Origin: Anaspis maculata
Lineage: Eukaryota > Arthropoda > Insecta > Coleoptera > Scraptiidae
Length of the DNA stretch: 64,000 nt
Reading direction: 5' to 3'
Assembly: GCA_949128115.1 (NCBI GenBank)
Contig: OX421966.1
Span: 70,057,416 to 70,121,415 of the forward strand
In this document: one piece after another, positions 2,641 through 46,874 of the stretch
How the letters are laid out: every line of letters begins with the position of its first letter
Numbering within the stretch: the stretch's first letter is position 1
The notes under the pieces: generated by a model
Database searches by the model: none
What the model was told of the DNA's origin: nothing
What the model saw: only the letters and a program-made list of their open reading frames with translations
Position numbers and translations under genes: made by a program

Positions 2641-3127
2641 AGTTGATTAAGGGTAGTTATGGACAGTTTAATGGGAGTGACAACCATTTAAAGGAAAGTT
2701 GATCTAGTAGCTCAAGAAAATAAAATTGATAGAAGTTTAAGAAGCAGATGAAAGGCGACTGATTTAAGTTTTAAGGGAGGCTTAAGACCAGTGAGCATTG
2801 CTTGGAATCGGTCCAGCGGTTAAGGAGTAACGGTAAGGGACAATTTTTTTATTCCAACTGTGGAGGGCTCCATATCCGTTATTTCGAATTCCCGAAGTAT
2901 ATTTCCTAGATCGGGTCTACTTCTTTTTCCTATCCTTCACCGATTGGTGAAGTTTTTTTGCTCTAATTCCAGAAACTTTTCATAGTTTGAGGGATTTGTT
3001 AAGATTTATCCAACAACATTGGAAGGTAGCTTGAAGCATCTTGGAGGTATGCTCAAGGAGAGTTCGAGAGAGGCGATACAAATTTGAAGGGAAGTTAGCG
3101 TACGGAATGTGGGATGGTTTGTCGATG
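2641..3127. repeat. Degenerate short-repeat DNA, left flank of Penelope insertion
   Basis: The sequence is A+T-rich with loosely repeated words such as GAAGTTGA, TTAAGG and TTGAGGGAAG. The same flavour resumes at 7712-8300 on the far side of the Penelope element, so the two were one stretch before that insertion. I see no gene. Confidence 0.4.
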
Positions 3128-3139
3128 AGAAATATTTGA

Positions 3140-3385
3140 TTTGTTCGTATTTTTGTCCTATTGGATGATACTACAGTTCGGCGGATTTTGAGGGCTTGAG
3201 GACAGTGAGTAAAAATGTCTTCTTTGTTAACGCACAACGTTTCGCCTCTAATTTGGGACTTCCTCGGGTGCTAGAAGTAACGTATATTGAAGTTAGAAAT
3301 AAAATATAGAAATACAAAAGTTCACGGTTAGCGATGATTGATATTTTATGAAAATTTTGATTTAAAAGGCGAAAAAGTAACATTT
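3140..3385 (-). repeat. Inverted terminal segment of the Penelope-like element
   Basis: Reverse-complementing this stretch gives close to the sequence at 7487-7699, including the words CCCGAGGAAG, AAATTAGAGGC and GTTAACGC. A short copy at 19549-19922 carries the same ends. The motif at 3238-3270 (minus strand) has a helix-loop-helix layout of the hammerhead stem II type, but its first core box is CCGAGGA rather than CTGATGA. Confidence 0.75.
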
Positions 3386-3449
3386 GAAGGTTTTCGAAGA
3401 CTCACTAACAATCCCGAACATCTGGAGACTGAAGGCTAAAAGGAATAAC

Positions 3450-7327: not shown

Positions 7328-7699
7328 ACATTTAGACCACTTATACATCTTTTGACATTTACATAGGTACACTTCTGGAATATCTACACCTACCATCATT
7401 ATTTCACTAATTACTGTGCAGCTGGTTGTTATATTATAAATATTTTTGACAATTCAAAATCAATCGAAATTTTTCTATTCCCATAAATGTCACTTTTTTG
7501 CCTTTTAAATCAAAATGCTCATGGAATAACAATCATCGCTAACCGTAAGTTCTTGTATTTTTATATTTTATTTCATACTTCAATATACGTTACTTCTAGC
7601 ACCCGAGGAAGCCCCAAATTAGAGGCAAAACGTTGTGCGTTAACAAAAAAAAATTACTCACTGTCCTTAAACCCTTTGAAAATTCGCCGAACTATAATA
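7328..7699 (+). repeat. 3' terminal region of the Penelope-like element
   Basis: This is the remaining 3' end after the hAT insertion. It is repeated nearly in full at 19640-19900 and inverted at 3140-3385. At 7602-7633 a GC-rich hairpin followed by AAAACG occupies the place of the hammerhead stem II and GAAAC box found in other Penelope terminal repeats. The Penelope frame ends shortly after the hAT junction. Confidence 0.7.
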
Positions 7700-7711
7700 A
7701 GAAATATTTGA

Positions 7712-8340
7712 GGAGTCTGGTTTGAGGGAATGAAATGAGAAAACAGGATGAATCAAAGAGAATTTCAGGGAAAAGCATTGTAGAATGGAGAGAAACGTAG
7801 ACTTACCTCGGGTTCCACCAAAATTTAAAGAGCAGATTAAATCTATCACGCTGATAGTTGCTATGCACCAGCCAATAGGATGGGCAGTTGCTTAGTTACT
7901 ATCAGAGTGATAAAGTTATCACGCTGATAAAAGTTTGGTGGAACCCGAGGTTAGGCAACAAAAATTGAGTTCGGATTTCCGGAACAAAATTAAAAGATAA
8001 CAGCAAGGAACATTCAAGTGAATTGAGAGGGAAGTTCTAGAGTAACAACAACAATTTGGAGGGAAGTTGAGGACTACGGTTTGAGAGAAAGAATTGAAGT
8101 ATTATGACATTTCTTTCCAAGTTTAGCGGAAACGTGACCAACTTTGTATTTGAGGGAAGCTCAAGAGAAGGTGGAAGGGAAAGTTCAAGGGAGCTTGAAG
8201 ACCAGTTAAATATAACTAAGTCAAGGTACATACAGCCAGTTTTTGAAGAGCAATCACAAATTGAAGAGAAGTTGATCGTCGGAATCTAAAATAGAGATAA
8301 GTGTCTATTATTAGAGCAAGTCAGTAAAAGAAGACAAAAA
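7712..8340. repeat. Degenerate short-repeat DNA with one embedded MITE
   Basis: Loosely repeated words such as GAGGGAAGTT and TTGAGAG recur. The MITE at 7806-7950 is listed separately. No coding sequence is supported. Confidence 0.35.
7806..7950. mobile_element. Harbinger-type MITE (145 bp, TTA duplication)
   Basis: Perfect 17-bp terminal inverted repeats, CCTCGGGTTCCACCAAA and its complement, are flanked by TTA on both sides (7803-7805 and 7951-7953). A 3-bp TTA duplication is characteristic of PIF/Harbinger elements. Internal words TATCACGCTGATAG and CTATCAGAGTGATA form a second inverted pair. It has no coding capacity and would depend on a transposase supplied elsewhere. Confidence 0.75.
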
Positions 8341-9400
8341 CTAAGACTGAAAATATTTCAGAACTGGAGAGTAGTTAGCGTAAAAGAGCCTAGGGTGAAT
8401 GTTTCTGGAAGACACGTAGTTAGTCTCCAAAGTCCAATCTTGCAAGTTTCGATGCTCTCGATAGATCTTTAACGTTATTGTTCGGAGCTTCTCCAATTCC
8501 TGCTGGAGCATGGATAAAATTACAACTATTGCCCCAACGATGTATGAAACAGCAATTGTTTCGTGCTGCTGTACTATCTGCCCCCACTGCCGAACGGCTC
8601 TTCTGCGTTGTCGCTTCTTTTCCACAGAACCGTCGAGAACCGCAATAAACAAGCACACGCAAAGTCTGCCAGCCTCTCTTCCACGCCACGCCGGGGCAGT
8701 ATCCGGCCGGGTATCTGGGCTTTCCTTTTTATTTCCTGTTTATGTAATGGACAAGTTTTCAGGGGAAACTGGCCGGAACATCAAACTTGTCTCGGGGAAG
8801 TTGATAAACGGCCCCCGAGGGATCACCGGGCGCTTCCAGATCCACGCGCCGTTCGTACCATTCTGTCGCCCGCCGTACCAAAAAGAAAAGTGAGGTGTTT
8901 CACTGCGGCGGCATTTTTTTTTCACTCTGCGAGATCAAAATCTAAATTTCCTCTGCGGCGGCGGCGGCGGCGGCGGCAGCGCACACGACGCAACGTTAGC
9001 GATATTTCGTATCTTTTATCATCTCTGCATTTTGTTTTTATTACGCTGGAACATGACGCGACCCCAAGTAGGTATATAAAATGAGACGAGGGTGCGTGTG
9101 CGTATGGCCGAAAACGTCTCGAGCTTTTTCAGCCGGCGCTTTCAAGGTCGCGAGCAGTTTTCCGAGAGGGAGATACGGGCGCAAGGTGTGACATTAATCA
9201 TTCAGATATCTGACGTGAGATGGAGCTCTGGAGAAAGGGCGAGCCCCCGCGAGGAAAAGGCCGTATCTATAGCCAGACTGGGGAGAATGGGAGACGGGGG
9301 ACGGACGCGTCGAGCTACAGGTGAAAAACGAATTGTTTGTTGCGGGTTTGGCTTCACAATTTTCACGAGCCTCGGTGACAAATAGTGTATTACATGCATA
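8341..9400. other. Unassigned GC-rich island with a CGG repeat
   Basis: Base composition rises well above the surroundings, with many CpG dinucleotides and a CGG/CGGCGG run at about 8955-8980. Open frames of up to 173 codons occur in several registers (for example 8563-9084, plus), as expected from GC-rich DNA, and none resembles a known protein. A minus-strand frame at 8341-8658 has one hydrophobic stretch but no family match. It could be a promoter or first-exon region of a host gene, or part of an old element. Confidence 0.25.
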
Positions 9401-10515
9401 TTCAGGTGGAAAGTAGCGTATTACAGGCGAGGGTCAAGACACATTACTTGCGTGACTCAAGTTCTGTATGCAATATACGAGTCGACCAGTGCCAGCGATG
9501 CTGTCTTGAAACGGATGATACTCTACTTGATAACCGTTTTTCAAGTTTCTGTTTCATTATTGATCCCCCTGTCGTTCAGTTCTTTGATTAGTTCAACCTC
9601 CAATCAATCTCAATTTCGATAACAATATCCAACATTCTCACCCTCGTGAAGATTGCTCCTCATCTTCTCTCATCTCTGAACATACTGAACATCAATACTA
9701 GGAGTCTTAGAGGCTGATCTATGGTATATCCCCATCTCCGTCTTCATGCCGGTGATTCTGACTTATCCGTCATTGCTGGTGATTACATTAGTTCCTTCAC
9801 TGTATGTATCATTTTCTTCTCTTCGTCAAATCTAGAATGTACCTACTTCCTGATCCACCTATGCCAAAAATGTCCCATTCCTATTGTATTCTGATATTTC
9901 AGTTATTCTCTTGGAATTCTTTTGGAGATTCAGTTGTGATTAATTTTTGTATCAGTAAGTGATTTGGTATGATAACCTCGAGGTCTTTTTCATCAGAAGA
10001 CATATTAATCAACGGTTGACTATCAATGTGTTCTGCTTCTGATAAGGCAGATGACAACTCCTCTGGATTGAGTGCTGTTCTTCTCGATGTAGCTTTTATC
10101 GCCGTTCTTCTGTTATCCGTTAGATCCTCCTGAAGCTTTGGATAAGTCTATCGTGATTTTGACGACAATGCATGTGATTGTCAAGATCAAATTGAAACAT
10201 ATTCCCAGTAGATGTCATTGAAATAAATATGAATTCCTTCTACCTTTGTCAAACATATATACGTATTTACGCGTATTCTGAAACATTTGATACGAGATAA
10301 TGTAAATTTTCTTGTTCCATTCAAGTAGGATAAGATGAATCTACGACATGGAATGATGATCATGCTATCTCTGATGAACCCTCAAACTCCGAACCCTTAA
10401 CCCCTCGACCCGTAAACCCCTAAACTTCTAACCCCAAATCCCTTCCGGTCTTCAAATACCTTCACCGAACTTTTGTCGAAAGCAATCAAATAGTTTATCA
10501 GCGAATTTCAGCGAA
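9401..10515. other. Unassigned intergenic DNA
   Basis: No long frame, tandem structure or terminal repeats are apparent. A run of AACCCCTAAAC-like words near 10385-10440 is irregular and is not a telomeric array. Confidence 0.3.
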
Positions 10516-10708
10516 GGGAAGATCTCTGAAGTTGCATCCGTCGTGGGAAGGACCGTACACGGTAGTCAAGAGGACTAATGACGTCGTGTACAGAATCTAG
10601 CGAGCCCCAAAAGTCGAAATGAAAATTGTCTACCTTGATTGCCTTGCAAGTTACTCGGGGAGTAGCGATGAGCCTATTTGGGACAAACAAGCTTGAGGGA
10701 GGGGCAGT
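10516..10708 (+). pseudogene. Ty3/Gypsy integrase C-terminus (GPY/F module) fragment
   Basis: Plus-strand translation from 10519 gives LHPSWEGPYTVVKRTNDVVY, the GPY/F-type module at the C-terminus of many Ty3/Gypsy integrases, which contacts target DNA. A TAG interrupts it at about 10598, after which similar Pol-end sequence continues to about 10700. It is immediately followed by TGTTACG, a plausible LTR start. The rest of this plus-strand element is missing to the left. It is independent of the minus-strand errantivirus next to it. Confidence 0.7.
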
Positions 10709-10961
10709 GTTACGAGCGGCGATTCTGGATAACACGCGATCTTTCTAGACTCTTCCCGTTAGATCGCAATGTACAAGAGCGGAGCGTCCTGGTGTGTTAA
10801 TTATATCAATTGGGACCGAACAAACGTTTTAAAAAAATATTTTAATTACTAAAGAACGTACATTTAAGCTTCTACGCGGATATAATAAGAATGAATGCTA
10901 CTACAATGCGTTTCTATTATAATAAATCTGGAAGTGCTGATTCTGCCGTGCTGACGTTGCA

Positions 10962-12761
10962 CTAGTGCGGCAGTGGCATTGATGTAACTCCTCCCCTCGA
11001 AGATTCAGGTTCGGAGGCACGAGGAAGCTGAACAACTCGTGGTGGCGGCATTGGTGATGGTAAGGGTTGCCGGGGTTGTTCTTTGACGGTTCTGTAGGAC
11101 TTCAAGAATCGAAGAATTGGGTTCTTGAAGAAAATGATTACGACTATCACGACAATCATGGCATAGATGATGTGGGTGTGATGACCAGAATTGGATGAAC
11201 GTTTAAGCATCGCTTGGGCCTGGAACCATTTAACCTCATTTTTCAACTCGGAGATGTTTTCCAAGTTAACAGGGTTGATATGCGTCTTCTTTTGTGATGG
11301 GTGTTGGAATTCTTGAATTTCCATGTCCTCGAAGTCAACGAACAGGGGTCGACCTAGTTCTTCTTCCACTGATGGGCTTAGTTTTTGGTCGTTGATAAAA
11401 ATGATACACTGTGGTTGCATGTGTATCAAGTAGGTACCCTGAAGACGTTGCATTTCTCGTCTTGAAGGGCAGGTAATTTTGAGGTCGGCGTAGTTTGGTG
11501 GTATAAGAAGCCAATACTTGGTGTCCTCTATTTCTTGAATTTGGAGGTCTTGAATTTCGATGGAGTGTCGGTTGCAATCCGATAATTTTTGGTTTCGGAT
11601 GATGTTGACTTCGCAGTTGTTCTTGGAAAACTCGATCAGTGCAGTTTTGCAGAAAAAGACTTCGTTGATCTTTTGGCAGTCCTCGGTTTCGTGGGCGAAA
11701 CGACTCCCCGATAGTAGTAAATATCTGGTATCGGGTAAAACTAATCGAAAGGACTGAGATTCACGCCAAATGGAAATCGGGTAGAGTTTATATAGGTCGA
11801 ACGGTTCATTATGATACAGGGGAATTTTCAGAATAAATACAAGTTTGTCGTTGTAAATGTATGAATCTACTTCAATTAATTTGGAAATATAGATTAGATT
11901 TTTCGGCTTTATTTCAAACGGCAATTGTGGCATTTCCCCGGTTGACTTCAATTTTGAAAGTGCATTGAAAAGATCGTTGGTGAATATGATGCTGGGATGT
12001 AAGACTTTTAATTTTGTAAATGATATAGCCAGCAATAATTGATCTAGAATTTTTGAGATAGTCTGATACATTAACTGGATTTGATTTAACGTATCAGCAA
12101 GATTATGGAGGTGTAATTGTTGAACTACTTCGTCTCTTAGGATTACTTCAGCTTCCGTTATTCGTGTTTCTAAAATAACCTCATTCTGATAGAGATCCAT
12201 TATAGATTTGTTGAATTTTTCAATAATTTCTGTGGAAAGAGAGTACTGTTTTTTAATATTTTCTTGGAGTGAATTTAGATTTTCGGCTAGTTCCTGAATC
12301 ATATTCTCGAAGTGAATTCCGTCTTCATCATCCAAATTTCCTGTAATACTTTTAAAAACTGAACCAAGTGCATTTATCAATCCGCGTTTTTTCCTGTTCA
12401 AATTTGGGCTCTCTCTAACTGTTGTCTTGTTGGGTAGAATTTCAAAGATACTTTCCTGAATGGCGTTTTTTGTATTGTCTATAACTTTCAAATAATTTCC
12501 TATTTCCATTGAGTACGTCAAGTTGTTGAGTTGTTGTGTCTGTCGGGTCGAGGTTGAATCTTGTGTAATTATTCGTGTGAGAGAATTGAGGTTTCTGTTG
12601 AGTTTTTCAAAGCGGTTGACCAAAATGGATATGTCATAATAGTAGAGTAATTTATAGGAATATTGCTGGATTTTTGCAGTACCTAGGTGTACTGGGAGGA
12701 GTCCTGGATTATTTTTAAGGTTCCGTATCTCTATCGGACTCGTGGTCGTTATCAATACCAT
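10962..12761 (-). CDS. env: Errantivirus envelope glycoprotein, baculovirus F-like
   Basis: The 599-codon frame encodes a membrane fusion glycoprotein of the baculovirus F / errantivirus Env type. A furin-type site RKKR lies at residues 123-126, followed at once by a hydrophobic Gly/Ala-rich fusion-peptide region, then a long helical, coiled-coil-rich segment, a Cys-containing ectodomain, one membrane-spanning segment at about residues 525-550, and a Pro-rich tail of about 45 residues. The listed Met lies inside the pol overlap. The hydrophobic signal-like run starts a few codons upstream in the same frame, just after a splice-acceptor-like CAG (about 12778-12780), fitting the known expression of errantiviral env from a spliced RNA. 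No internal stops are present. Confidence 0.9.
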   Translation of the reverse strand: MVLITTTSPIEIRNLKNNPGLLPVHLGTAKIQQYSYKLLYYYDISILVNRFEKLNRNLNSLTRIITQDSTSTRQTQQLNNLTYSMEIGNYLKVIDNTKNAIQESIFEILPNKTTVRESPNLNRKKRGLINALGSVFKSITGNLDDEDGIHFENMIQELAENLNSLQENIKKQYSLSTEIIEKFNKSIMDLYQNEVILETRITEAEVILRDEVVQQLHLHNLADTLNQIQLMYQTISKILDQLLLAISFTKLKVLHPSIIFTNDLFNALSKLKSTGEMPQLPFEIKPKNLIYISKLIEVDSYIYNDKLVFILKIPLYHNEPFDLYKLYPISIWRESQSFRLVLPDTRYLLLSGSRFAHETEDCQKINEVFFCKTALIEFSKNNCEVNIIRNQKLSDCNRHSIEIQDLQIQEIEDTKYWLLIPPNYADLKITCPSRREMQRLQGTYLIHMQPQCIIFINDQKLSPSVEEELGRPLFVDFEDMEIQEFQHPSQKKTHINPVNLENISELKNEVKWFQAQAMLKRSSNSGHHTHIIYAMIVVIVVIIFFKNPILRFLKSYRTVKEQPRQPLPSPMPPPRVVQLPRASEPESSRGGVTSMPLPH

Positions 12762-15615
12762 GAGCAGTAGGGCGAACCTGCAACAATTTATTGATCTTTA
12801 ATGGTCGCTTAATGTTTCTCATGTGATATTTGCGTTGTTTTGTGGCAATAACATGTTTGTTCCTATCAACTGCAACGGGTTTTATGGGTGGCCTAAATTT
12901 ATTTTGGGTTTTGGTCACCCGTCTAGTTTCCTTAGGGTAAATAGCTTGTTCAGCGTCAAGTTCGATTTGTTCTTTGTCTTTGTTAAGTCTTGATAAGGTT
13001 TTCGTTTTATTTTCTTGTAGCCTGTCATTGAGTTCACGGTATAACAGTTTGGTCTTTTCTTTGTGATTCTGAGCATAATTACTAGTCAGTAATTTTTGGC
13101 AGTTTATGTCAAAAGGGTCGTCTAATTCTAGGTGGCCAGATACAATTTCGATAGGTTTTTTGCCAGTTGAGGTGTGTATAGAATGGTTATAGGCAAGAAC
13201 TGCGAAAAGAGTTTTAGTCTTCAAATCTTCAGCTGGGAATTGTTCGTTGAGCAGCCGAATGTGTTCTAACAGTGTACTGTGTAACCTTTCTACCATGCCG
13301 TTGGATTGTGGATCTTCAGGAGTGATGAAATGAATTTTTATTTTATGTAATTCAAGTAGTTCTTTCAAATTTGTGTTTTTGAATTCTGTGCCGTTATCAC
13401 AAATTATCATCTTTGGAATTCCAAGGTGTGAAAAGAATTTCAGAAGGCTCTGAATTATGTCGATTGAGTTGTGACTTTGTATCTTATAGATTTGAGCGTA
13501 TTTCGAGAATGCATCTATGATCGTGAGAAATATTCCCTTATCAATCGTTATCGTATCGATATGTATCGTCTCGAAAGGTTTAGTTGCTGTGGGTGTTAGG
13601 TTGATTCCCAGTTTCAAGGGGTTGCGTTCGTATTTTGTACGTTGGCAGATATCGCAGGTATTTATGTATGTCTGAATTGAACTTTTCATGTTAAGCCAAT
13701 AATAAAGACTTTTAATTTTTGCCTCTGTTTCATTTATACCGCGATGGTTGGTCTTGCTCTCGTGATATCTTCGTAGTACTTCAGGTATTTGGTTTTCCTC
13801 TACATCTATCAATTTTCGTTTTGTACAAATGAATTTATAGTGGGCCCACTTGAATGTTTTCCTCACTGTCTCGCAAAATGAATAGTATGCTTCTGGGGGA
13901 TCAAAGATCATGTGATACGTTATTTCGGGTACGATGTATTCCCTTATAAAGTCAATGATTTCGGTGTCGAAATTATTTTTATCGATTTGGACAAGTAATC
14001 TCTGTCTGTTTGGGAACGGCTTTATAATTTTGGTTCGAGCTGGAGAGTGATTGACCAGTTCGATTTCAATTTGATTTTGACCTTTATTCAATATATCATC
14101 AGATATCGGAATTTCAACAATAGGGTTTTCTTGGTCATCAGAATGTTGAGTACCGTCATCATTTTCAGGCTCTGGTAATGGGTCGTCAGGTTCTGGTAAT
14201 GGGTCATCAGGTTCTGGTAATGGGTCATCAGGTTCTGGTAATGGGTCATCAGGTTCTGGTAATGTGTCATCAGGTTCAGGTACCTGCTGGATGTCGTTTT
14301 CGTGGTCGCGATCTATAACAACTGGTTCGGGGGTTTGATCATCGGTTTCGTCTATAGCTATTGTTGGTACGATTTCGGGCTCGGTTTCGTTTAGAATGTA
14401 AATACGTATATTGACGGTAGTGTTCCTAAAGGTGGTTTCGATCATTTGGGATATTCTTTCCCATTTTAGGCCATCAAGCCCACAAGAAATTTTAGGTATA
14501 GCAAGATCTTTAACATTATGTCGTAAACAGAGATCTTTTAAATAGGTGAGTGATTCTTGCAGATTTTCGTAGGTAGGCTGGTCATGGTAACTAGACTTCG
14601 TGATCATATAATAAACGTATCTAGAAGGGAGTTTCAAGCAGGCGACCTCTCCAACTTCTTTACGTTGTTTTGTTAGAGTCGATATATGATTAAATCTTGT
14701 TCGAAACTGAACTGCGATCCCTTTGTTCATTATAAGGTCTTGAGAAATACAGTGAGCAAGGGAGAAATGTTTGGGGGCGTCAAAAAGGTTTCCATTCAAA
14801 ATTTTGATTCGGTTTGATTTTTCTTTTTGTGACGTCGAAGGCATACCGATCTCTGATTGTTCGTCTTTGTTGGCGATTAGAGAGGCTTTTTCTAATTCAT
14901 CATTGAATTCTCTGATATAATTATGAATATTCTGAGGTATATTGGTTTCATTGATATTGATTTCTATGCGAGATAGAGCGTCTGCATTGGAATTCAATTT
15001 TCCTTTTTTATAGATGATTTTATAATCATATTCCTCGAGCTTGAGGCGCCACCTGACCAGTTTGGAGTTTGGCTCCTTGAGGGAGAATAACCATATCAAG
15101 GGTTTGTGATCAGTGATAATATTAAACTTACGCCCAAAGAGATAGGGCCTAAAGTACTTCACGGCGTACACAATTGCCAGAAGTTCCTTCTCGATCGTGG
15201 AGTAGTTTTGTTCCGTATCATCGAGAGTTCGTGATGCAAAGGCCAAGGGCAGGTCATTACCAATGGGCCCTTGAGACAAAACGGCTCCAATGGCTACGTT
15301 GCTCGCATCGGTGGTCAGGTTAAACGTTTTAGAAAAGTCAGGATACTGAAGGATGGGCTCGTTCATCAATACCTTTTTGCATGTGTCGAAACAGGACAAG
15401 AATTCTTCATTATGGGTAATTGTGGCATCTTTTTTCGAACATTTAGTCAATGGCTTGGTGAGTTTCGAGAAGTCTTTGATGAACTTCCTATAGTAGCCCA
15501 AGAGCCCTAGAAATCCTTTTAGCTGCTTTGGCGTTTTTGGGATGGGAAAATTTTGAATAGCTCTAACCTTTTCTGGATTGGGCTTAATGCCATTGGGTGT
15601 GACAACATGACCCAA
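12715..15615 (-). CDS. pol: Errantivirus Pol, second part: RT thumb, RNase H, macrodomain, integrase
   Basis: The 966-codon frame continues Pol after an in-frame stop. Residues 1-75 are RT thumb. RNase H spans about 95-215 with D103 (TTDAS), E142 or E144, D169 (TDHK) and D212 (ADALSR). A macrodomain occupies 269-409, followed by an acidic PEPDD repeat (446-484) and a spacer. Integrase has the zinc-binding set H618, H624, C654, C657 and the catalytic triad D687, D740, E776. The C-terminus is basic and overlaps env. The frame has no other stop over 2.9 kb. RNase H degrades template RNA and integrase inserts the cDNA. The listed Met is internal and not a natural start; in the intact element this would be one polyprotein with the RT. 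Confidence 0.92.
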   Translation of the reverse strand: MGHVVTPNGIKPNPEKVRAIQNFPIPKTPKQLKGFLGLLGYYRKFIKDFSKLTKPLTKCSKKDATITHNEEFLSCFDTCKKVLMNEPILQYPDFSKTFNLTTDASNVAIGAVLSQGPIGNDLPLAFASRTLDDTEQNYSTIEKELLAIVYAVKYFRPYLFGRKFNIITDHKPLIWLFSLKEPNSKLVRWRLKLEEYDYKIIYKKGKLNSNADALSRIEININETNIPQNIHNYIREFNDELEKASLIANKDEQSEIGMPSTSQKEKSNRIKILNGNLFDAPKHFSLAHCISQDLIMNKGIAVQFRTRFNHISTLTKQRKEVGEVACLKLPSRYVYYMITKSSYHDQPTYENLQESLTYLKDLCLRHNVKDLAIPKISCGLDGLKWERISQMIETTFRNTTVNIRIYILNETEPEIVPTIAIDETDDQTPEPVVIDRDHENDIQQVPEPDDTLPEPDDPLPEPDDPLPEPDDPLPEPDDPLPEPENDDGTQHSDDQENPIVEIPISDDILNKGQNQIEIELVNHSPARTKIIKPFPNRQRLLVQIDKNNFDTEIIDFIREYIVPEITYHMIFDPPEAYYSFCETVRKTFKWAHYKFICTKRKLIDVEENQIPEVLRRYHESKTNHRGINETEAKIKSLYYWLNMKSSIQTYINTCDICQRTKYERNPLKLGINLTPTATKPFETIHIDTITIDKGIFLTIIDAFSKYAQIYKIQSHNSIDIIQSLLKFFSHLGIPKMIICDNGTEFKNTNLKELLELHKIKIHFITPEDPQSNGMVERLHSTLLEHIRLLNEQFPAEDLKTKTLFAVLAYNHSIHTSTGKKPIEIVSGHLELDDPFDINCQKLLTSNYAQNHKEKTKLLYRELNDRLQENKTKTLSRLNKDKEQIELDAEQAIYPKETRRVTKTQNKFRPPIKPVAVDRNKHVIATKQRKYHMRNIKRPLKINKLLQVRPTAHGIDNDHESDRDTEP
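14164..14280 (-). repeat. In-frame 21-bp tandem repeat encoding PEPDD(P/T)L
   Basis: Five to six copies of a 21-bp unit encode the heptad PEPDDPL in Pol, residues 446-484, between macrodomain and integrase spacer. The acidic, proline-rich tract is probably an extended linker. Neighbouring copies are almost identical, so unit number likely varies between copies of the element. Confidence 0.9.
14389..14811 (-). other. TARG1/OARD1-like macrodomain inside errantiviral Pol
   Basis: Pol residues 269-409 match the macrodomain of the TARG1 (OARD1, C6orf130) family along their whole length. The N-terminal GNLF and SLAHCISQD, the loop MNKGIAVQF, then VYYMITK and PTYENLQ, and finally IPKISCGLDGLKW appear in family order and spacing. 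Enzymes of this family bind ADP-ribose and remove it from acidic side chains (terminal ADP-ribosyl-ester hydrolysis) and from O-acetyl-ADP-ribose. The Lys and Asp used by human TARG1 for catalysis appear to correspond to K340 and D381, so activity is plausible. It sits between RNase H and integrase in an uninterrupted frame. Family assignment is from recognition, not a search. Confidence 0.85.
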
Positions 15616-15654
15616 GTAATTTACTTCTTTTCTTAGGAACTCGGACTTGTCCAG

Positions 15655-16242
15655 TTAAATTTTGAAATTCGCTTGTTCTAATCGTTGAAAAACTTGTTTT
15701 AGGTTAACCAAATGGTCCTGAAGTGACACACTGAAGATGATTATGTCGTCTAGATAGACTAGACAAAGCTCATTCTGTAACCCGCGTAAAATATTCTCTA
15801 CAACGCGCTGGAAGGTCGCCGGAGCGTTCTTTAACCCAAAGGGCATGCGTAGGTACTCATAGTGCCCGTTTTCGACCGTAAATGCGGTCTTTTGAATGTC
15901 TTCCGGGGCCATTTCAATTTGGTGGAAACCGGAAGCCAGGTCTAACAGGGTGAAGTACTGACAACGTCCCAGTTTGTCAAGAATATCTGAGATGTTTGGC
16001 AATGGATACCTGTAGTCGATAGTTTTTTCATTTAACTTCCTGTAGTCGACAACTACTTTTTCACAACACTTTTTTTTATCGGCACAACTAATATGTGCCC
16101 AAACCCCGCAGTCATTGCAATGGATTCGTTTTTTGACAGCGGGCCCATTACATACATAACAGAGTACTTTCCCAGATCCTTCACCGCTAGCCATCATGAT
16201 AACTAGCTTTCCTCTTCCTGTCCCTTCTTCTGTTCTGTTCAC
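15655..16242 (-). CDS. pol: Errantivirus reverse transcriptase fused to a PHD-like zinc-finger leader
   Basis: The 195-codon frame has two unlike parts. Residues 28-60 show C28-x2-C31, C42-x2-C45, H50-x2-C53 and C59/C60, the spacing of a PHD-type zinc finger that lacks its last ligands. From residue 62 ([13 protein letters not shown]) onward it is errantiviral RT, with motif A Asp at D101 and YLDD at 163-166. The usual RT N-terminus, protease and gag are missing, and the junction falls in an A-rich run at about 16060-16072, consistent with an internal deletion. A TAA at 15655-15657 ends the frame; the same frame continues downstream as Pol, so the stop is a point lesion. M17 is the more likely start. 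Confidence 0.8.
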
Positions 16243-17205
16243 AAAGCTTGAAATTTGACGCTGCGTTAAGAACTGTCACCCAGATCAACTCTTCGAAGGT
16301 TTCGTTCTTCTCAGCGTAATTCTTTGATGGCGATATAATCACAAGTTCTCTAGGCTCAGACGGGCACGTTCTAGCTCAAAATAGACTACACAGTACTTCT
16401 TGAATACAAATTATATCGGATGCAAAGTTGAGATTGACTTGATGTCGGTTTGACGTTTTAAGGAGTTGTAAATAATAATAAACAGTGTGTGTTTTAAAAT
16501 GATCGCTCACTTATATTCGAACCCGTTCGCGAAATACGTAACAATATATTTCCAGTCTCAACGTCACCAACTTGAAGTAGTTCAAGTAGAGTAGCTCTCT
16601 TGCGGTGAATCGAACTCAAGTTCTTCCATGCCCTGTTCCTAACACATTGAAAAGCAATTTCGCAATTCGAGCTCCGGACTGGGGCGTCCTTTGACAAGCG
16701 CCGCTACAATAAATTAAAAAAGCCCTTGTGTGTGCGCGTCTACGGGTGTATGTGTCTCCGACCGATGGGAAACAAGAGATCTGATCCCCCATAAGCACAC
16801 TAGATAAAGGCCAATATACGTATTCAGCGTTTTTCTTTATCTCCATTCAGGTTTCAATTGCCCCTTTGTTTGGCGAACACCACTCACTCTCTTCTCACTT
16901 TCTTTCTTTTCTCTCCGTCGCGTCGTGTTCCTTTGCTCTGCCGTTTCTTAATTTGTTTCGATCCAATATTTGCGCAAAGGACCCTTCTGGGATTTTCGTG
17001 GGGCGCGTTCGCGCTTTTGGAATATGCCTTCGTCGCTTGAAAAATTCAGCTCAGAAGTTTTTATTTTTCATTTTCACTTTTCCAGACCCTCTTGCCGACA
17101 AAATGGAAGAAGTGGTGACTATTGTGTAAATAGTCAGATGGCTATGGATTATGTTCACTTTGGGGTCCCTCAATGGCCAATTGATCGCTTCCCAGATTGA
17201 TTTAT
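16243..17205. other. Region upstream of the errantivirus; unassigned
   Basis: The first 300 bp may be errantiviral leader and LTR remnants or the split LTR described separately. From about 16700 to 17130 the DNA is less A+T-rich, with pyrimidine tracts and short frames without family resemblance. No gene is supported. Confidence 0.25.
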
Positions 17206-17422
17206 GTCTGTCTGTGTACATCTCTGTCTATTTTAGTCATCTGTCGCGTTGCGTATAAAGCCTTTATCGAGGCTTTCATAGACATCAATTTGTATTTTTT
17301 TCAAAATAACGTCTTGATACAATTGGAAAAAATGAAAATTGATGTCTATAAAGGCCTTGATAGAGGCATCCCGTGACAGATGACTAGAATAGACAGACAT
17401 ATACATACACAGAGAGACAGAC
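17206..17422. repeat. Foldback (inverted repeat), 217 bp
   Basis: Arms of about 95 bp starting GTCTGTCTGT and ending in its complement surround a spacer of about 30 bp. The arms match with scattered differences. It sits at the edge of the GATTTC array. Confidence 0.8.
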
Positions 17423-18041
17423 CTACAATTCAAGTCCGTCTCTCTGCAAACACTCTACGGGATTTACCTTGAAAAAATCACAGGATTTCTGCAGATTTCT
17501 GAAGATTTCCAGGGATTCCAAATGATTTCGGGAATTTTCAGTGGAATTTCCAGGGATTTCTACTGCAATTCTAGGGATTTCTTGAGATTTTTGAAGATTA
17601 CCAATAATTTTCTACGGTTTCTGGGGATTACGAAAAGGCTTCTATGAGATTTTAGAAGATTTCCGAGAATTTTCGAGCAGTTCCTTATATCCTACGAAAT
17701 TTTCAAAGATTTTGTTTCGATTTCTAGATATTTCTACGAGATTTCAGAGATCTTCTAGGGATTTTTTCAGGATTCCTACGATTTTGGGATTTTTCTACGC
17801 TTTCTAGGAATTTCTATGGATTTTTGGAAATTCCTACGGGATTTGCGAAAAATTTCAAAAAATGCCTGAGATTTTTTTAGGAGTATTCAAAGAATGTTGG
17901 GGACTCCCAAGAATTTCTATGGATTTCTCATCAATTTCTACAGGATTTCTAGGATTCCATGAAGATTTGTATTTTATGTAGGTATCCCATTTCCAGGGAT
18001 TCCTGAAGATTCCTTGGATTTTTATTTTACACTGTTGAGGA

Positions 18042-18317
18042 ATTCCTCTATAAAACTTTGGAGTAGAGGAATGGGTTGAGTGAGACCAGTGTCGGCTGTG
18101 CGATATTTTTTGTCTGTATGTACCTGTACAAATTGAAGTTATTCAGTCGTGTGAAATGTGTAAATAATTATAACAATTTCTTTTGTCTCACATATTGTGT
18201 CTCCCATGTTAGCTTTCAAGTGCTTATTTTGTCTTTCTTTCTTTTTTGACGCTTGCCATAATCATCAATGTAATTCAGATTTTCAAAGCGATAAAATACT
18301 ATTGATTGATTGATTGA
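18042..18317 (+). mobile_element. Probable non-LTR retrotransposon 3' end with (ATTG)n tail
   Basis: A non-repetitive stretch interrupts the GATTTC array and ends in ATAAAATACT followed by about five copies of ATTG. Simple-sequence 3' tails of this kind are typical of CR1/RTE-like LINE insertions. No coding part remains, so the family is not established. Confidence 0.4.
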
Positions 18318-18574
18318 TTCCCACGAAATTTTTCAAGAATTTCTAGAGATTTCTGAAGATTTCTACAGGATTACTGAAAATATTTACGAGATTTTTGAGA
18401 ATTTCGGTGAGAATTTCCAGAAATTTCCCAAGATTTCTACGGAATCGCTAAGAATTTATGAACATTTCTATGAGATTTCTAGGGATTCCTGTGAGCATCT
18501 ACGAGATTTTTGATGAGTTTTTCTAGACTTTTATGAAGATTTCTACATATGATTCCTGAAGTAAACGAGTGATG

Positions 18575-18690
18575 GAATAGATTTTTCCTCAAGTCGCCTA
18601 TGGTTCCTGAAAATCTGGCGGAAAAACGTGGCTACCCAGAAGACCGAGGCCTACTTCGAGGAGAAATTTGTTCGATCACTCTTCATTAAC
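18575..18690 (+). pseudogene. Exon-like island in the GATTTC array, unidentified
   Basis: One plus-strand frame from about 18591 reads RLWFLKIWRKNVATQKTEAY and continues EEKFVRSLFINEI with balanced codon use and about 50 percent GC, unlike the repeats on both sides. A weak AACGAG direct repeat is present near both edges. It may be a fragment of a retrocopied or captured host transcript, or a single exon. I do not recognise the protein. Confidence 0.3.
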
Positions 18691-19548
18691 GAGATTCTTC
18701 AGCATTCCTGTGAAAATTGCTCAGGATTTCTAAAGATTTCTACTGGGATCTGAGGATTCCTGAAGATTCGTCGAAAACTCTAGGGATTTTTTAATATTTC
18801 TATGAAATTTTCAAGGATTTCTAGGGATTTCTACAAAATTTTCAAGGTTTTTTAGAGATTTGCCTGGAATTTTTGGTGCTTTCAAGTTTCTTACGGTATG
18901 TTTGAAGATTTTTAGGGATTTTTGAGATTATTCATTTTTTCATTACTATTAGTGGAGTCGGCACGTTCGGAAAAAGTCCTGTTCGCTGCATTTTAGAGTA
19001 ATGCAATGCCCTTTGGCACACATGTTCTTAGAACCTGTCTGAATAATTCTGTCCATCGCCGCAATAGTCCAGTAAACCTACGTAAAAAAGAGGTGAACCT
19101 CAAACTAATTGCAACAGAAATAATTCTTTCGCTTTTAAATACCTTGAAGTCCTACAAGCAACATATCAAAAATTAAGAGAAATTAAAATGGCGGAAGGTC
19201 TTCAAAATGGCAAATCAAAAATGGCGGTGTCACTTTGTATAGTTTTTGCTTATAGTACATAAAAGATCAGTTTCTACCTGAAAATAAATCATGGAAATCT
19301 GAAAATGTCAGGATGTGTCTACTGTCTAGAACTGCCTGCCTTATAACTTATCCAAAAACGACAAAAATCGTACTGGAGGGTTTTGTGTTATTCAGGGGAA
19401 GGGGAGCTAAAATTGCTATTCAAAATGCATCAGAGTTAGAACTTAGAATTAATTACTTATACTGACTCAAATAAACAATTTTCCCGAATTTTTCTATGTG
19501 TCGAAGCCTGAAGGTACCATTTTTATAGAAAATGTATTATTGCATAAC

Positions 19549-19922
19549 ATTTATAGATCGGCGAATTTTGAGGGTTTAAGGACAGTGAGTAAAAATTTTT
19601 TCTTTGTTAACGCACAACGTTATATTAGATATAATTATTTTTGACAATTCAAATCAATCAAAATTTTTCTATTCCTTTAAATGTCATTTTTTCGCCTTTT
19701 ATATCAAAATTTTCTTAAAATAACAACCATAGCTAACCGTAAGTTCTTGTATTTTCATATTTAATTTCTTACTTCAATATACGTTACTTCTAGCACCCGA
19801 GGAAGCCCCAAATTAGGGGCGAAACGTTCTGCGCTAACAAAGGAAAATTTCTCTCACTGTCCTTAAACCCTCAAAATTCGCCGATCTATAATATCATACA
19901 ATAGGACAAAAATACAAAACGA
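19549..19922 (+). mobile_element. Truncated Penelope-like copy, 374 bp, with 13-bp target duplication
   Basis: The perfect direct repeat ATTATTGCATAAC at 19536-19548 and 19923-19935 brackets an insert. The insert begins with a short inverted piece of the Penelope 3' end (to about 19621) and continues with the 3' end in forward orientation. Hence even this extreme 5' truncation kept the inverted terminal arrangement seen in the longer copy at 3.1-7.7 kb. The hammerhead-like hairpin at 19797-19826 is better preserved here: GCCCC and GGGGC pair around a 6-nt loop and GAAAC follows. Confidence 0.85.
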
Positions 19923-19988
19923 ATTATTGCATAACGTGGGGGGGCACAGTGGGGGTGTTAACTAGAGGTTTGTGAAATTTTCTTTCTT

Positions 19989-20465
19989 CCATATTGGTGC
20001 TATACCGTCAAGTTAGGTATCATTTTCGACTAATTTCCACATTCTTAATCCAATGATAACCCCAAAATTGGAATAAAAACAAGTTTGAATAAGCTAGCTT
20101 GAAAAACCGTGTTTCATTAGGTATATTCTTTAATTTGATTTTTTCAGTATAAATTATTGTTGGATGCATCCAAAACTATTTTCCACTTTTGTTTTTTTTT
20201 TCAGCTTCCAAAAGCAAAATACGCAGGTATTGGGTACATGCTTTTGATAATGTTAAATACACTCCAAAGTAGTGACGTATAAAATAGTTCTGAATACAAA
20301 TGCCTCCAACAATTGAAAAAAAAACTGGAAAATGCCAAAGGAATTTTTTTTTCAGGTAACTTGTCCAAACTTGTTTCTATTGTAATTTTGAGGTCATCAT
20401 TGAATTCAGAATGTAGAAGTTAGTCGGAAATAATACCTAACTTGACGCGGTAGCTCTAATATGGA
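19989..20465. repeat. Foldback element, 477 bp
   Basis: Arms of about 100 bp begin CCATATTGGTGC and end GCTCTAATATGG. They share TCAAGTTAGGTAT and AATGATAACC-like words with roughly 15 percent differences. It lies within the larger foldback at 19065-21308. Confidence 0.75.
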
Positions 20466-44562: not shown

Positions 44563-46735
44563 TTAAATAAATAAATAAATAAATAAATATATTTATTGCA
44601 CCATCAGAAAACATACACTATGCTACAGGCTTCGTCAGTAAGAGTATACACACATTTTATGCGGTAAATATAATATCGTGTGCAACAGACTGCAACACGA
44701 AATGAAAGAGCAAAAGTTGATAGACTGTACACTACACATCAAAATCATGGCAGCAAGCAGAAGCAAATATAAAAAACAAAATCATATTATAGGGCACTAC
44801 AGTTAAGAAATTCATCCATACTGTAAAAACATTTCTTTATTAGGAGTTCCTTTAGTTGTTTCTTGAAGACAACAATGCTGTTGAGATTTTTTATGACACT
44901 GGGAAGTTTGCGGTATAATTGCCCACAGCAGTAATCGGGAGCTTTCTCGTACAGGGCAGTTTTGTGCTTTGGGAGCCTGATCTCCCTCCCCGCTCTCGTT
45001 TCATAATGGTGATATGCATTATTATTTATAAAAGAGTTTCTATAGGTATGAACATATATACAGCATCTCAATATAAACAAGGAGGGTAATGTAAGTATTC
45101 CCTCATTAACAAATGTGGTTCTACATGTTTCTCTGTACTTAAGATTAAAGATAAGCCTAATTACACGTTTTTGTAGCAAAAAAATGCGCTTAAGGTGGAC
45201 AGTTCCACCCCAGATTACAACATTGTAGTTCAGTTGGGATTGCACTATTGAGTAATAAATACTTTTCAAGGATACAACAGGTAGTGATGGTTTTAGTTTC
45301 AGTATGGCATAATAGGCTGAATTCATTTTTTTACACAGGTGGTCTACATGTATTTCCCACTTAAGACTTGAGTCAAGAAACGTCCCCAAGAATTTGGTAG
45401 CAGTCACAGTGTCCTGTTTAAAATGTAACACTACCGTCTTATTTTCATTTACAATGAGTCTATTCTTACTACACCATGCAGTCATCTCCTTCGTGACTGA
45501 CTCGATGCACTCATTCAAGCTATTCACAGCATTCGCGGACACAACAATCGACGTATCATCCGCGTATAGCACCACACTTCCCGATCTGATTAAATCTGGT
45601 AAGTCATTGATGTATAGGGAGAACATGAGTGCCCCGAGGATTGCACCCTGAGCCACCCCTATATCCAGATCACACACGTCAGAGACCTGTCCATCCACTT
45701 TAACGATTAGTTTCCTGTTTAGCAGGAATGACATGATCCATTTCAGAATCTGACCTCTTATGCCTAATTTGTACAACTTATGTTCTAAAAACCTATGATC
45801 TATAGTATCAAATGCAGACGCCAGGTCAAAAAAGAGTGCAGCAACATGATTACCTAAGTCTAATTCCCTATGGATGCAGTTCAAGAAGCATATTGATGCA
45901 GTTTCCGTGGATCTTCCGGGACGAAAGCCATGTTGTGAATCCGACAGGAGATTCTTCGATATCAGATAGTTCATAAGTCGCTGATGCACAATCTTCCCGA
46001 ACACCTTCGAGAAGCAGCTGAGGAGTGAAATGGGCCGGTAGTTCCTGATGTCAGATGGGTCGCCTTTCTTGTAGATTGGGAGAACGTCAGCCAGTTTGAG
46101 GGTGTTGGGAAATTCACCCGCCTCGATCGATAGGTTGATAAGGTAGCTCAGAGGGTCCGCAATGGCATGCGCAGTAGCCTTGATCGCTTTTGTAGGAACT
46201 CCATCTGGACCAGTCGAATTTTTGTTTTTCAGGCAGCAAATCACGTCAAACACCTCTTGCTGGGTGACTGGATGGAACACCATGCTACTCAGCGTCGATT
46301 TAGAAGTTGTGCATGGTTCAACTGGCCTGAGGTGGAAATGCCTTTGAACGCTGCGTGCAGCATTGGTTGCAAAATGTTGGCCGAATGAGTTTGCAATATC
46401 CCACGGATTGGTGATGGTTTCATTTTGGATCTTCAACTTTATTGGTTTATTTTGCTTCGATTTGGTGTTTGTGTCGAGACTGACGTACCTCCACAATTCT
46501 CTGACAGGATTCGCCGAATTTTTTATTTTGTCGGAGTAGAAAGCACCTCTTGTCATCCTTACGAGTCTTCCGTGTTCCTTTCTATTCGTTTTATAGGAAT
46601 TCCATAGACGTACCTCCCCAGTAGTCCTTGCCATTGAATAAAGCTGCTTGAGACGCTGACCACTGACAACCACTTCTGCGGTGATCCATGGCTTCGCTTG
46701 TCCCTTTATTGTAAGTTTTCTGATGGGGCAGTTGA
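44563..46735 (-). mobile_element. LINE (CR1/Crack/Daphne-like), 5' truncated, with (ATTT)n tail
   Basis: The element comprises the ORF2 RT and C-terminal part, a 3' UTR of about 220 bp, and a tail of (AAAT)n on the plus strand at 44563-44590. The endonuclease domain is missing. Homology seems to begin at CPIRKLTIKGQAKPWIT (codon near 46730), so 5' truncation is placed there. The presence of two related 3' ends at 29.3 and 30.6 kb shows that the family is repeated locally. Confidence 0.8.
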
Positions 46736-46874
46736 CATCCAGGTAGTATAAGAGATTGCCTTGTCGCAACAAGTAACGAACCGTCGCTGTCCGTTCGTGA
46801 CGTAAGCTATATGCTAATGTTACAGGCGTGATTTTGTGACCGTTACTGATGGAAAACCGACGCAGCTCTAGCAC
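44787..46874 (-). CDS. LINE ORF2 reverse transcriptase, open but lacking endonuclease
   Basis: The 695-codon frame has no stops. Residues 1-48 do not resemble ORF2 and may be flanking DNA read in frame. LINE sequence starts near residue 49, with TGPDG at 221-225, LPIYKKGDPSDIRNYRPISL at 265-284, motif A FFDLASAFDT (D350, D356), AQGAILGALMF, and YADD at 437-440. The C-terminal domain ends FKKQLKELLIKKCFYSMDEF. In the complete element this enzyme performs target-primed reverse transcription with an N-terminal endonuclease. The intact frame suggests a fairly recent insertion. The listed start is the first Met in frame, not a likely native start. Confidence 0.85.
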   Translation of the reverse strand: MLELRRFSISNGHKITPVTLAYSLRHERTATVRYLLRQGNLLYYLDVNCPIRKLTIKGQAKPWITAEVVVSGQRLKQLYSMARTTGEVRLWNSYKTNRKEHGRLVRMTRGAFYSDKIKNSANPVRELWRYVSLDTNTKSKQNKPIKLKIQNETITNPWDIANSFGQHFATNAARSVQRHFHLRPVEPCTTSKSTLSSMVFHPVTQQEVFDVICCLKNKNSTGPDGVPTKAIKATAHAIADPLSYLINLSIEAGEFPNTLKLADVLPIYKKGDPSDIRNYRPISLLSCFSKVFGKIVHQRLMNYLISKNLLSDSQHGFRPGRSTETASICFLNCIHRELDLGNHVAALFFDLASAFDTIDHRFLEHKLYKLGIRGQILKWIMSFLLNRKLIVKVDGQVSDVCDLDIGVAQGAILGALMFSLYINDLPDLIRSGSVVLYADDTSIVVSANAVNSLNECIESVTKEMTAWCSKNRLIVNENKTVVLHFKQDTVTATKFLGTFLDSSLKWEIHVDHLCKKMNSAYYAILKLKPSLPVVSLKSIYYSIVQSQLNYNVVIWGGTVHLKRIFLLQKRVIRLIFNLKYRETCRTTFVNEGILTLPSLFILRCCIYVHTYRNSFINNNAYHHYETRAGREIRLPKHKTALYEKAPDYCCGQLYRKLPSVIKNLNSIVVFKKQLKELLIKKCFYSMDEFLNCSAL

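What the first reader, a model, noticed from the sequence alone, without database searches (positions are those of the whole stretch)
14389..14811. A TARG1/OARD1-like macrodomain inside an insect errantivirus Pol, between RNase H and integrase
The sequence shows an uninterrupted Pol frame in which about 140 residues between RNase H (ending near residue 215) and the integrase zinc finger (residue 618) match the TARG1 type of macrodomain, with the equivalents of the family's catalytic Lys (K340) and Asp (D381) retained. Macrodomains are known in alphaviruses, coronaviruses and hepatitis E virus, where they reverse host ADP-ribosylation. Some lentiviruses carry a captured dUTPase at this same Pol position. 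I know of no standard errantivirus with a macrodomain. The inference is that an insect retroelement captured a host ADP-ribosyl hydrolase, perhaps to counter PARP-based restriction, to remove ADP-ribose from nucleic acid or protein, or to process a tRNA-splicing by-product.
Basis: partly seen in the sequence, partly recalled or inferred. Interest (0 to 1): 0.93.

Follow-up and report, generated by a model that had tools for sequence, protein, structure and literature searches.

The report
Captured ADP-ribose eraser in insect retrovirus
Several families of virus-like jumping genes in what is probably an insect genome carry, at different places inside their replication polyprotein, a well-preserved copy of a cellular enzyme domain that removes ADP-ribose tags from DNA, RNA or protein, which suggests that such tags hinder these elements.

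The parts
14389..14811 (-). TARG1/OARD1-type macrodomain, 141 aa, family A, between RNase H and integrase
14596..14598 (-). codon of Lys72 of the domain (Pol K340), equivalent of TARG1 Lys84
   Evidence: alignment; invariant in the 27-row alignment
14473..14475 (-). codon of Asp113 of the domain (Pol D381), equivalent of TARG1 Asp125
   Evidence: alignment; invariant in the 27-row alignment
12715..15615 (-). open Pol frame (966 codons) holding end of RT, RNase H, macrodomain, acidic linker, integrase
15658..16050 (-). reverse transcriptase core (PF00078 E 1.7e-30), in the same frame but before one in-frame stop (15655-15657)
15028..15339 (-). RNase H (PF17917 E 1.5e-39)
14165..14282 (-). acidic PEPDDPL repeats in the linker after the macrodomain
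13630..13800 (-). integrase H2C2 zinc-binding domain (PF17921 E 2.9e-8 in the first query piece; the rest, in the second piece, only E 0.76 because the domain was cut)
13309..13584 (-). integrase core (PF00665 E 9.2e-13)
10962..12761 (-). env, baculovirus F type (PF12259 E 1.9e-31), 599 codons, overlapping the end of Pol

Best explanation
The segment is a functional TARG1-type ADP-ribosyl hydrolase domain that Ty3/gypsy (errantivirus-like) elements took from a cellular OARD1-like gene and now carry as part of Pol. Shown: its presence, predicted fold, catalytic residues, repeated copies, low omega, three Pol contexts, and an empty site in a sister family. Inferred: because it lies in Pol in each family examined, it is packaged with protease, RT and integrase at Pol dosage and acts inside the particle or reverse-transcription complex. 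There, like the dUTPase of some lentiviruses, it would clean the template, here by stripping ADP-ribose that host transferases put on RNA ends, single-stranded cDNA or Gag/Pol proteins. The domain was gained or relocated at least a few times, which points to a recurring benefit rather than chance.
For: TARG1 is the best match by sequence and fold, over the full length. Lys84 and Asp125 equivalents: of 50 genome copies L001-L050, 48 keep both; L019 has lost the Lys and L045 is interrupted at the Asp. Omega 0.075 for the macrodomain against 0.071 for RNase H (GY+F3X4, 14 and 13 sequences). 71 of 80 family B places have no stop inside the domain, counted by hand; 14 copy pairs tested are 96-99% identical at DNA level, those of A, B and C 98-99% over 3-6 kb. 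Contexts: RH-macro-IN in A, B, C, H; PR-macro-RT in D, G, F; macro before PR in E, one copy. Empty site: X linker residues 1-21 match B's left flank and 22-116 its right flank, reached by 0 of 200 shuffles each. F's RNase H is 64-65% identical to A's but its macrodomain only 33-36%, and F has no macrodomain between RNase H and integrase. Published: TARG1 removes ADP-ribose from thymidine in DNA, and K84A fails to rescue (PMC8501950, passages); TARG1 acts on 5' or 3' phosphates of dsDNA and ssRNA and on acidic residues (PMC8053099, passages).
Against: No activity was measured. TARG1's MGAGIA loop reads MNKGIA (A), MNSGIA (B), MTQGIA (C), MSSGVA (D), so substrate preference may have changed. Family C and F domains fall just under Pfam's cut-off (20.5 and 20.3 bits against 22). 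The macrodomain tree is weakly resolved: AU tests do not reject one clade for A+B+F (p 0.093), A+B+C (p 0.23) or D+G+F (p 0.283), nor for A+B+H+F (p 0.258), A+B+H (p 0.424) or all RH-IN copies (p 0.439), so repeated capture from cells is not proven against relocation between elements. The shift between A's and B's insertion points rests on a short stretch (16 and 7 of 1000 shuffles); A's left flank and B's right flank show no direct likeness (113 of 200 shuffles), nor does the first part of H's right flank with X (139 of 1000). dS between families is saturated, so omega values are rough. Family H copies are decayed, and sister family X does without the domain.
Confidence: 0.62

Rival explanations
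1. One ancient capture, then relocation by recombination between elements (and losses, as in X): the domain is an old module of this group of elements, not a repeated host capture. Its function could be the same as in the best explanation, which leaves this open.
For: All element domains in the trees form one clade apart from human TARG1 and 12 viral relatives (96/93; 96/96). AU tests do not reject the clades expected under vertical descent.
Against: At least four changes of position state on the RNase H tree; F against A: 64-65% RNase H but 33-36% macrodomain identity. A and B insertion points seem to differ by about 40 residues against X (suggestive only). No insect OARD1 was in the tree, so the one-clade result cannot tell the two apart.
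Confidence: 0.4
2. The domain binds but does not hydrolyse: an ADP-ribose reader that ties Pol or the integration complex to PARP-marked chromatin or damaged DNA.
For: Macrodomains can be readers (recalled); the loop next to the substrate is changed in the families compared; its place next to integrase in A, B, C would suit targeting.
Against: The catalytic Lys and Asp are kept in families A, B, C and D, and D, G, E, F carry it far from integrase.
Confidence: 0.15
3. A passive passenger or spacer without function.
For: Family X lives without it; H copies are decayed.
Against: Omega as low as that of RNase H; catalytic residues and open frames kept across families 39-56% identical to A.
Confidence: 0.05
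4. Assembly chimera or contamination (phage or bacterial TARG1/DarG joined to an insect element).
For: Phages carry such domains (32 records).
Against: At least 150 matching places on many contigs, and in A and B the RNase H matches end where the macrodomain matches begin; the window domain is nearer to human TARG1 (E 5e-42) than to the best phage copy (39% identity, E 6e-25; the two searches differ in size).
Confidence: 0.01

Closest known systems
Human TARG1 (OARD1, C6orf130)
   Different: Stand-alone cellular enzyme; here a domain in a retroelement polyprotein, with a changed MGAGIA loop
DarG antitoxin macrodomain
   Different: Bacterial antitoxin; NCBIfam DarG model far below its cut-off (53 against 250 bits)
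Macro-domain ORFs of fish epsilon-like endogenous retroviruses (Basta et al. 2009)
   Same: A reverse-transcribing virus with a macro domain
   Different: Reported as additional open reading frames, in fish; known to me only from one passage of a review (PMC4977317); the original is not held, so its macro subtype and place were not compared
dUTPase of some lentiviruses, between RNase H and integrase (recalled)
   Same: Captured cellular enzyme at the same Pol place, acting on nucleic acid precursors
   Different: Unrelated fold and chemistry
Orchid Ty3/Gypsy elements with an AlkB-type RNA demethylase ORF (PMC9289625, passages)
   Same: Ty3/gypsy element that took up a nucleic-acid-cleaning enzyme
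   Different: Plant element, demethylase, separate ORF
Alphavirus, rubella and coronavirus macrodomains
   Same: Viral macrodomains thought to counter host PARPs (recalled, and PMC8053099 passages)

Membership tests
TARG1/OARD1-type macrodomain | Macro fold with TARG1 as closest solved structure over the whole domain | tested here: met
   (predicted fold)
TARG1/OARD1-type macrodomain | Catalytic Lys84 and Asp125 equivalents | tested here: met
   window copy (L001); 48 of 50 copies L001-L050 (families A-D); E, F, G sequences show both by eye; decayed H1 reads GLN at the Asp place
TARG1/OARD1-type macrodomain | ADP-ribosyl hydrolase activity | not testable with these tools
   needs an enzyme assay
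TARG1/OARD1-type macrodomain | Branches with insect OARD1 genes in a tree | not tested
   host gene not found; PF01661 search of the genome not answered
Errantivirus (gypsy clade, Metaviridae) | RT, RNase H, integrase in this order with F-type env in an overlapping frame | tested here: met
   RT is cut off from the rest by one stop in this copy
Errantivirus (gypsy clade, Metaviridae) | Aspartic protease at the start of Pol | tested here: inconclusive
   not seen in this rearranged copy; in family A copy L094 a DTGA stretch, Pfam E 0.001 below cut-off
Errantivirus (gypsy clade, Metaviridae) | Flanking LTRs | tested here: inconclusive
   no direct repeat of 60 bases or more in 8000-20000; this copy is rearranged; other copies not tested
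Lentivirus-type Pol with dUTPase insert | dUTPase domain between RNase H and integrase | tested here: not met
   the insert is a macrodomain; only the place agrees
DarG antitoxin | Reaches the curated DarG model cut-off | tested here: not met
   53 bits against 250

The most novel reading that the evidence does not exclude
Insect hosts ADP-ribosylate retroelement nucleic acid or capsid as a form of restriction, and Ty3/gypsy elements answered by capturing a cellular TARG1 several separate times, at different points of Pol, so that each particle carries its own ADP-ribose eraser. This would be a so far undescribed arms race at the reverse-transcription complex.
Probability: 0.3. Interest if true: 0.92.

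Novelty: new variant of a known kind. Interest (0 to 1): 0.78.

Why it matters
If right, it points to ADP-ribosylation of retroelement DNA, RNA or particle proteins as a real obstacle in animals, a subject where, by the review seen here in passages (PMC8053099), the relevance in cells is unclear. It gives a natural, selected enzyme in many copies and at several Pol sites with which to find the substrate, and gives insect retroviruses a counterpart of lentiviral dUTPase. A macro-less sister family in the same genome makes a ready comparison.

Tried and rejected
Protein database search (search for homologous proteins) was switched off, so other insects could not be surveyed. Scans with the single domain or with RNase H and integrase found no relative in viral contigs or, for the domain, genome contigs; only the phage-based alignment found relatives, 33 of 99 stretches in viral contigs, whose surroundings I did not examine. 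The genome search answered three times (36, 52, 108) and reported busy at 15, 20, 26, 41, 42, 49, 58, 59, 63, 67, 71, 73, 75, 81, 83, 86, 88, 91, 93, 95, 96, 98, 100, 103, 106, 110, 112, 114, 116, 118, 120, 123, 125, 126, 129, 131, 134; so no host OARD1, no count for E and F beyond 9 and 10 places, and no full list of macro-less families. Considered and rejected: assembly chimera, alphavirus-like macrodomain, DarG membership. Literature: nine searches listed no paper that I could recognise, from title and abstract start, as reporting a macrodomain in an errantivirus or Ty3/gypsy Pol; several listings were cut to the best 12-30 of many. Beyond listings I saw passages of PMC4977317, PMC9289625, PMC12992720, PMC8501950, PMC8053099 and PMC6338049. 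Subscription papers are mostly not in that library. Rows dropped: samples A2, B2, C2 left out of the trees as near-duplicates; the macrodomains of L098 and L096 (frameshifted) were left out of the macro tree; L093 (F2) has no RNase H; 12 of 33 viral relatives were used in the trees.

Full report

It is a repeated feature. A search of the window's own genome (758 Mb, 50 contigs, unnamed) scored 150 of 500 candidates, all significant. Counted by hand and by identity band, 65 belong to the window's family A (61-100%), 80 to B (48-57%), 4 to C (47-49%), 1 to D (39%). Searching with D (150 of 466 scored) added G (1), a second D piece, E (9) and F (10); these are lower bounds. Surroundings were checked only for the window, for L031-L050, L089-L094 and L095-L098; for further A and B copies the coordinates show RNase H matches ending where macrodomain matches begin. 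Long open frames occur (1437 codons in B, 1482 in A, 1627 in C), and tested copies of A, B and C are 98-99% identical over 3-6 kb, those of E and F 96-98.5% (14 pairs), so I infer recent activity; no LTR dating was done.

Where it sits. A, B, C and decayed H carry it between RNase H and integrase. D, G and F carry it between protease and RT, E before the protease (D, G and E from one copy each, F from three). Some protease matches are below Pfam's cut-off. Family A's Pol begins with a protease-like stretch and has no second macrodomain there. RNase H similarity puts F beside A and B (64-65% and 59-60%), yet its macrodomain is only 33-40% like theirs, and its RNase H-integrase linker holds none. 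A search with RNase H (143 of 7178 candidates scored) gave, by eye, about 19 places of 60-71% identity without a listed macrodomain match; I fetched four. L095 is a macro-less sister (X), L096 another F copy, L097 and L098 family H. The macrodomain lists being capped, the other 15 or so are undecided. In X, linker residues 1-21 match B's left flank and 22-116 B's right flank, with 0 of 200 shuffles reaching either score: an exact empty site. A's left flank matches X to residue 63 and its right flank from 55, so A's insert seems to sit about 40 residues further on; the stretches that decide this are suggestive only (16 of 1000 shuffles for A, 7 of 1000 for B), and A's left and B's right flank show no direct likeness (113 of 200). 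The RNase H tree needs at least four changes of position, counting absence as a state.

Origin. All element domains used form one clade apart from human TARG1 and 12 viral relatives (midpoint root), but no insect OARD1 is in the tree, and AU tests do not separate repeated capture from relocation (p 0.093 to 0.439). I therefore claim several gains or moves, not several captures from cells.

Selection. Omega is 0.075 for the macrodomain (14 sequences, no stop) and 0.071 for RNase H (13 sequences, one stop masked) under GY+F3X4 on BIONJ trees; a second model (MG+F3X4) gave 0.09-0.10 for the macrodomain and failed for RNase H because of that stop. Synonymous sites are saturated between families, so the comparison counts, not the absolute values. 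Within-family pairs give 0.25-0.41 for the macrodomain (four pairs) and 0.10-0.35 for RNase H (three pairs), as expected where neutral decay after insertion is mixed in. The Lys84 and Asp125 equivalents are kept in 48 of L001-L050 (families A to D); L019 has lost the Lys and L045 is interrupted. E, F and G show both by eye. D and G also have, upstream, a second half-domain like the C-terminal part of a macrodomain, without the catalytic motifs (best-domain E 8e-6 and 5e-5 in a nine-sequence search with a profile that includes D and G themselves); Pfam does not see it in G.

How it most likely works. TARG1 removes ADP-ribose from thymidine in DNA, and its K84A mutant does not rescue (PMC8501950, passages); it also acts on terminal phosphates of dsDNA and ssRNA and on acidic residues (PMC8053099, passages). 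A domain that is in Pol, wherever in Pol, in each family examined is best explained as an enzyme packaged with RT and integrase that keeps template, cDNA or particle proteins free of ADP-ribose. That step is inference.

Known and new. Fish epsilon-like retroviruses with macro-domain ORFs are a precedent (a passage of PMC4977317; the original not held). Ty3/gypsy elements with other captured enzymes are known (PMC9289625, passages). Nine literature searches listed no paper recognisable as reporting a macrodomain in an errantivirus or Ty3/gypsy Pol. I rate it a new variant of a known kind.

Noticed in passing
window 16081-16182, minus: Before the RT core, in the same frame, a Cys/His-rich piece resembling a C1 or PHD finger (PF03107 E 0.0045, below cut-off) stands where the N-terminal RT should be: this copy is a 5' rearrangement.
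   Followed up: partly
L046 (reverse strand, before the macrodomain at 2998-3411) and L089 2578-3000: Families D and G carry a second, degenerate macrodomain-like C-terminal half before the intact one; Pfam finds nothing in the G piece.
   Followed up: partly
L093: A family F copy lacks RT and RNase H but keeps an open 1053-codon frame running from a protease-like stretch and macrodomain into integrase.
   Followed up: no
L042 139-2280: Family C has about 410 residues between protease and RT with no Pfam match at E 0.01.
   Followed up: no
phage records H1-H20: 32 phage records encode TARG1-like domains; of the 20 listed, several are annotated only as phosphatase or hypothetical protein.
   Followed up: no
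window 44787-46874, minus: A 695-codon open frame that reads like a non-LTR retrotransposon reverse transcriptase (judged by eye).
   Followed up: no
window 3147-3390, 7428-7699, 19619-19893: A dispersed repeat of about 210-280 bases, 87-88% identical, in both orientations.
   Followed up: no
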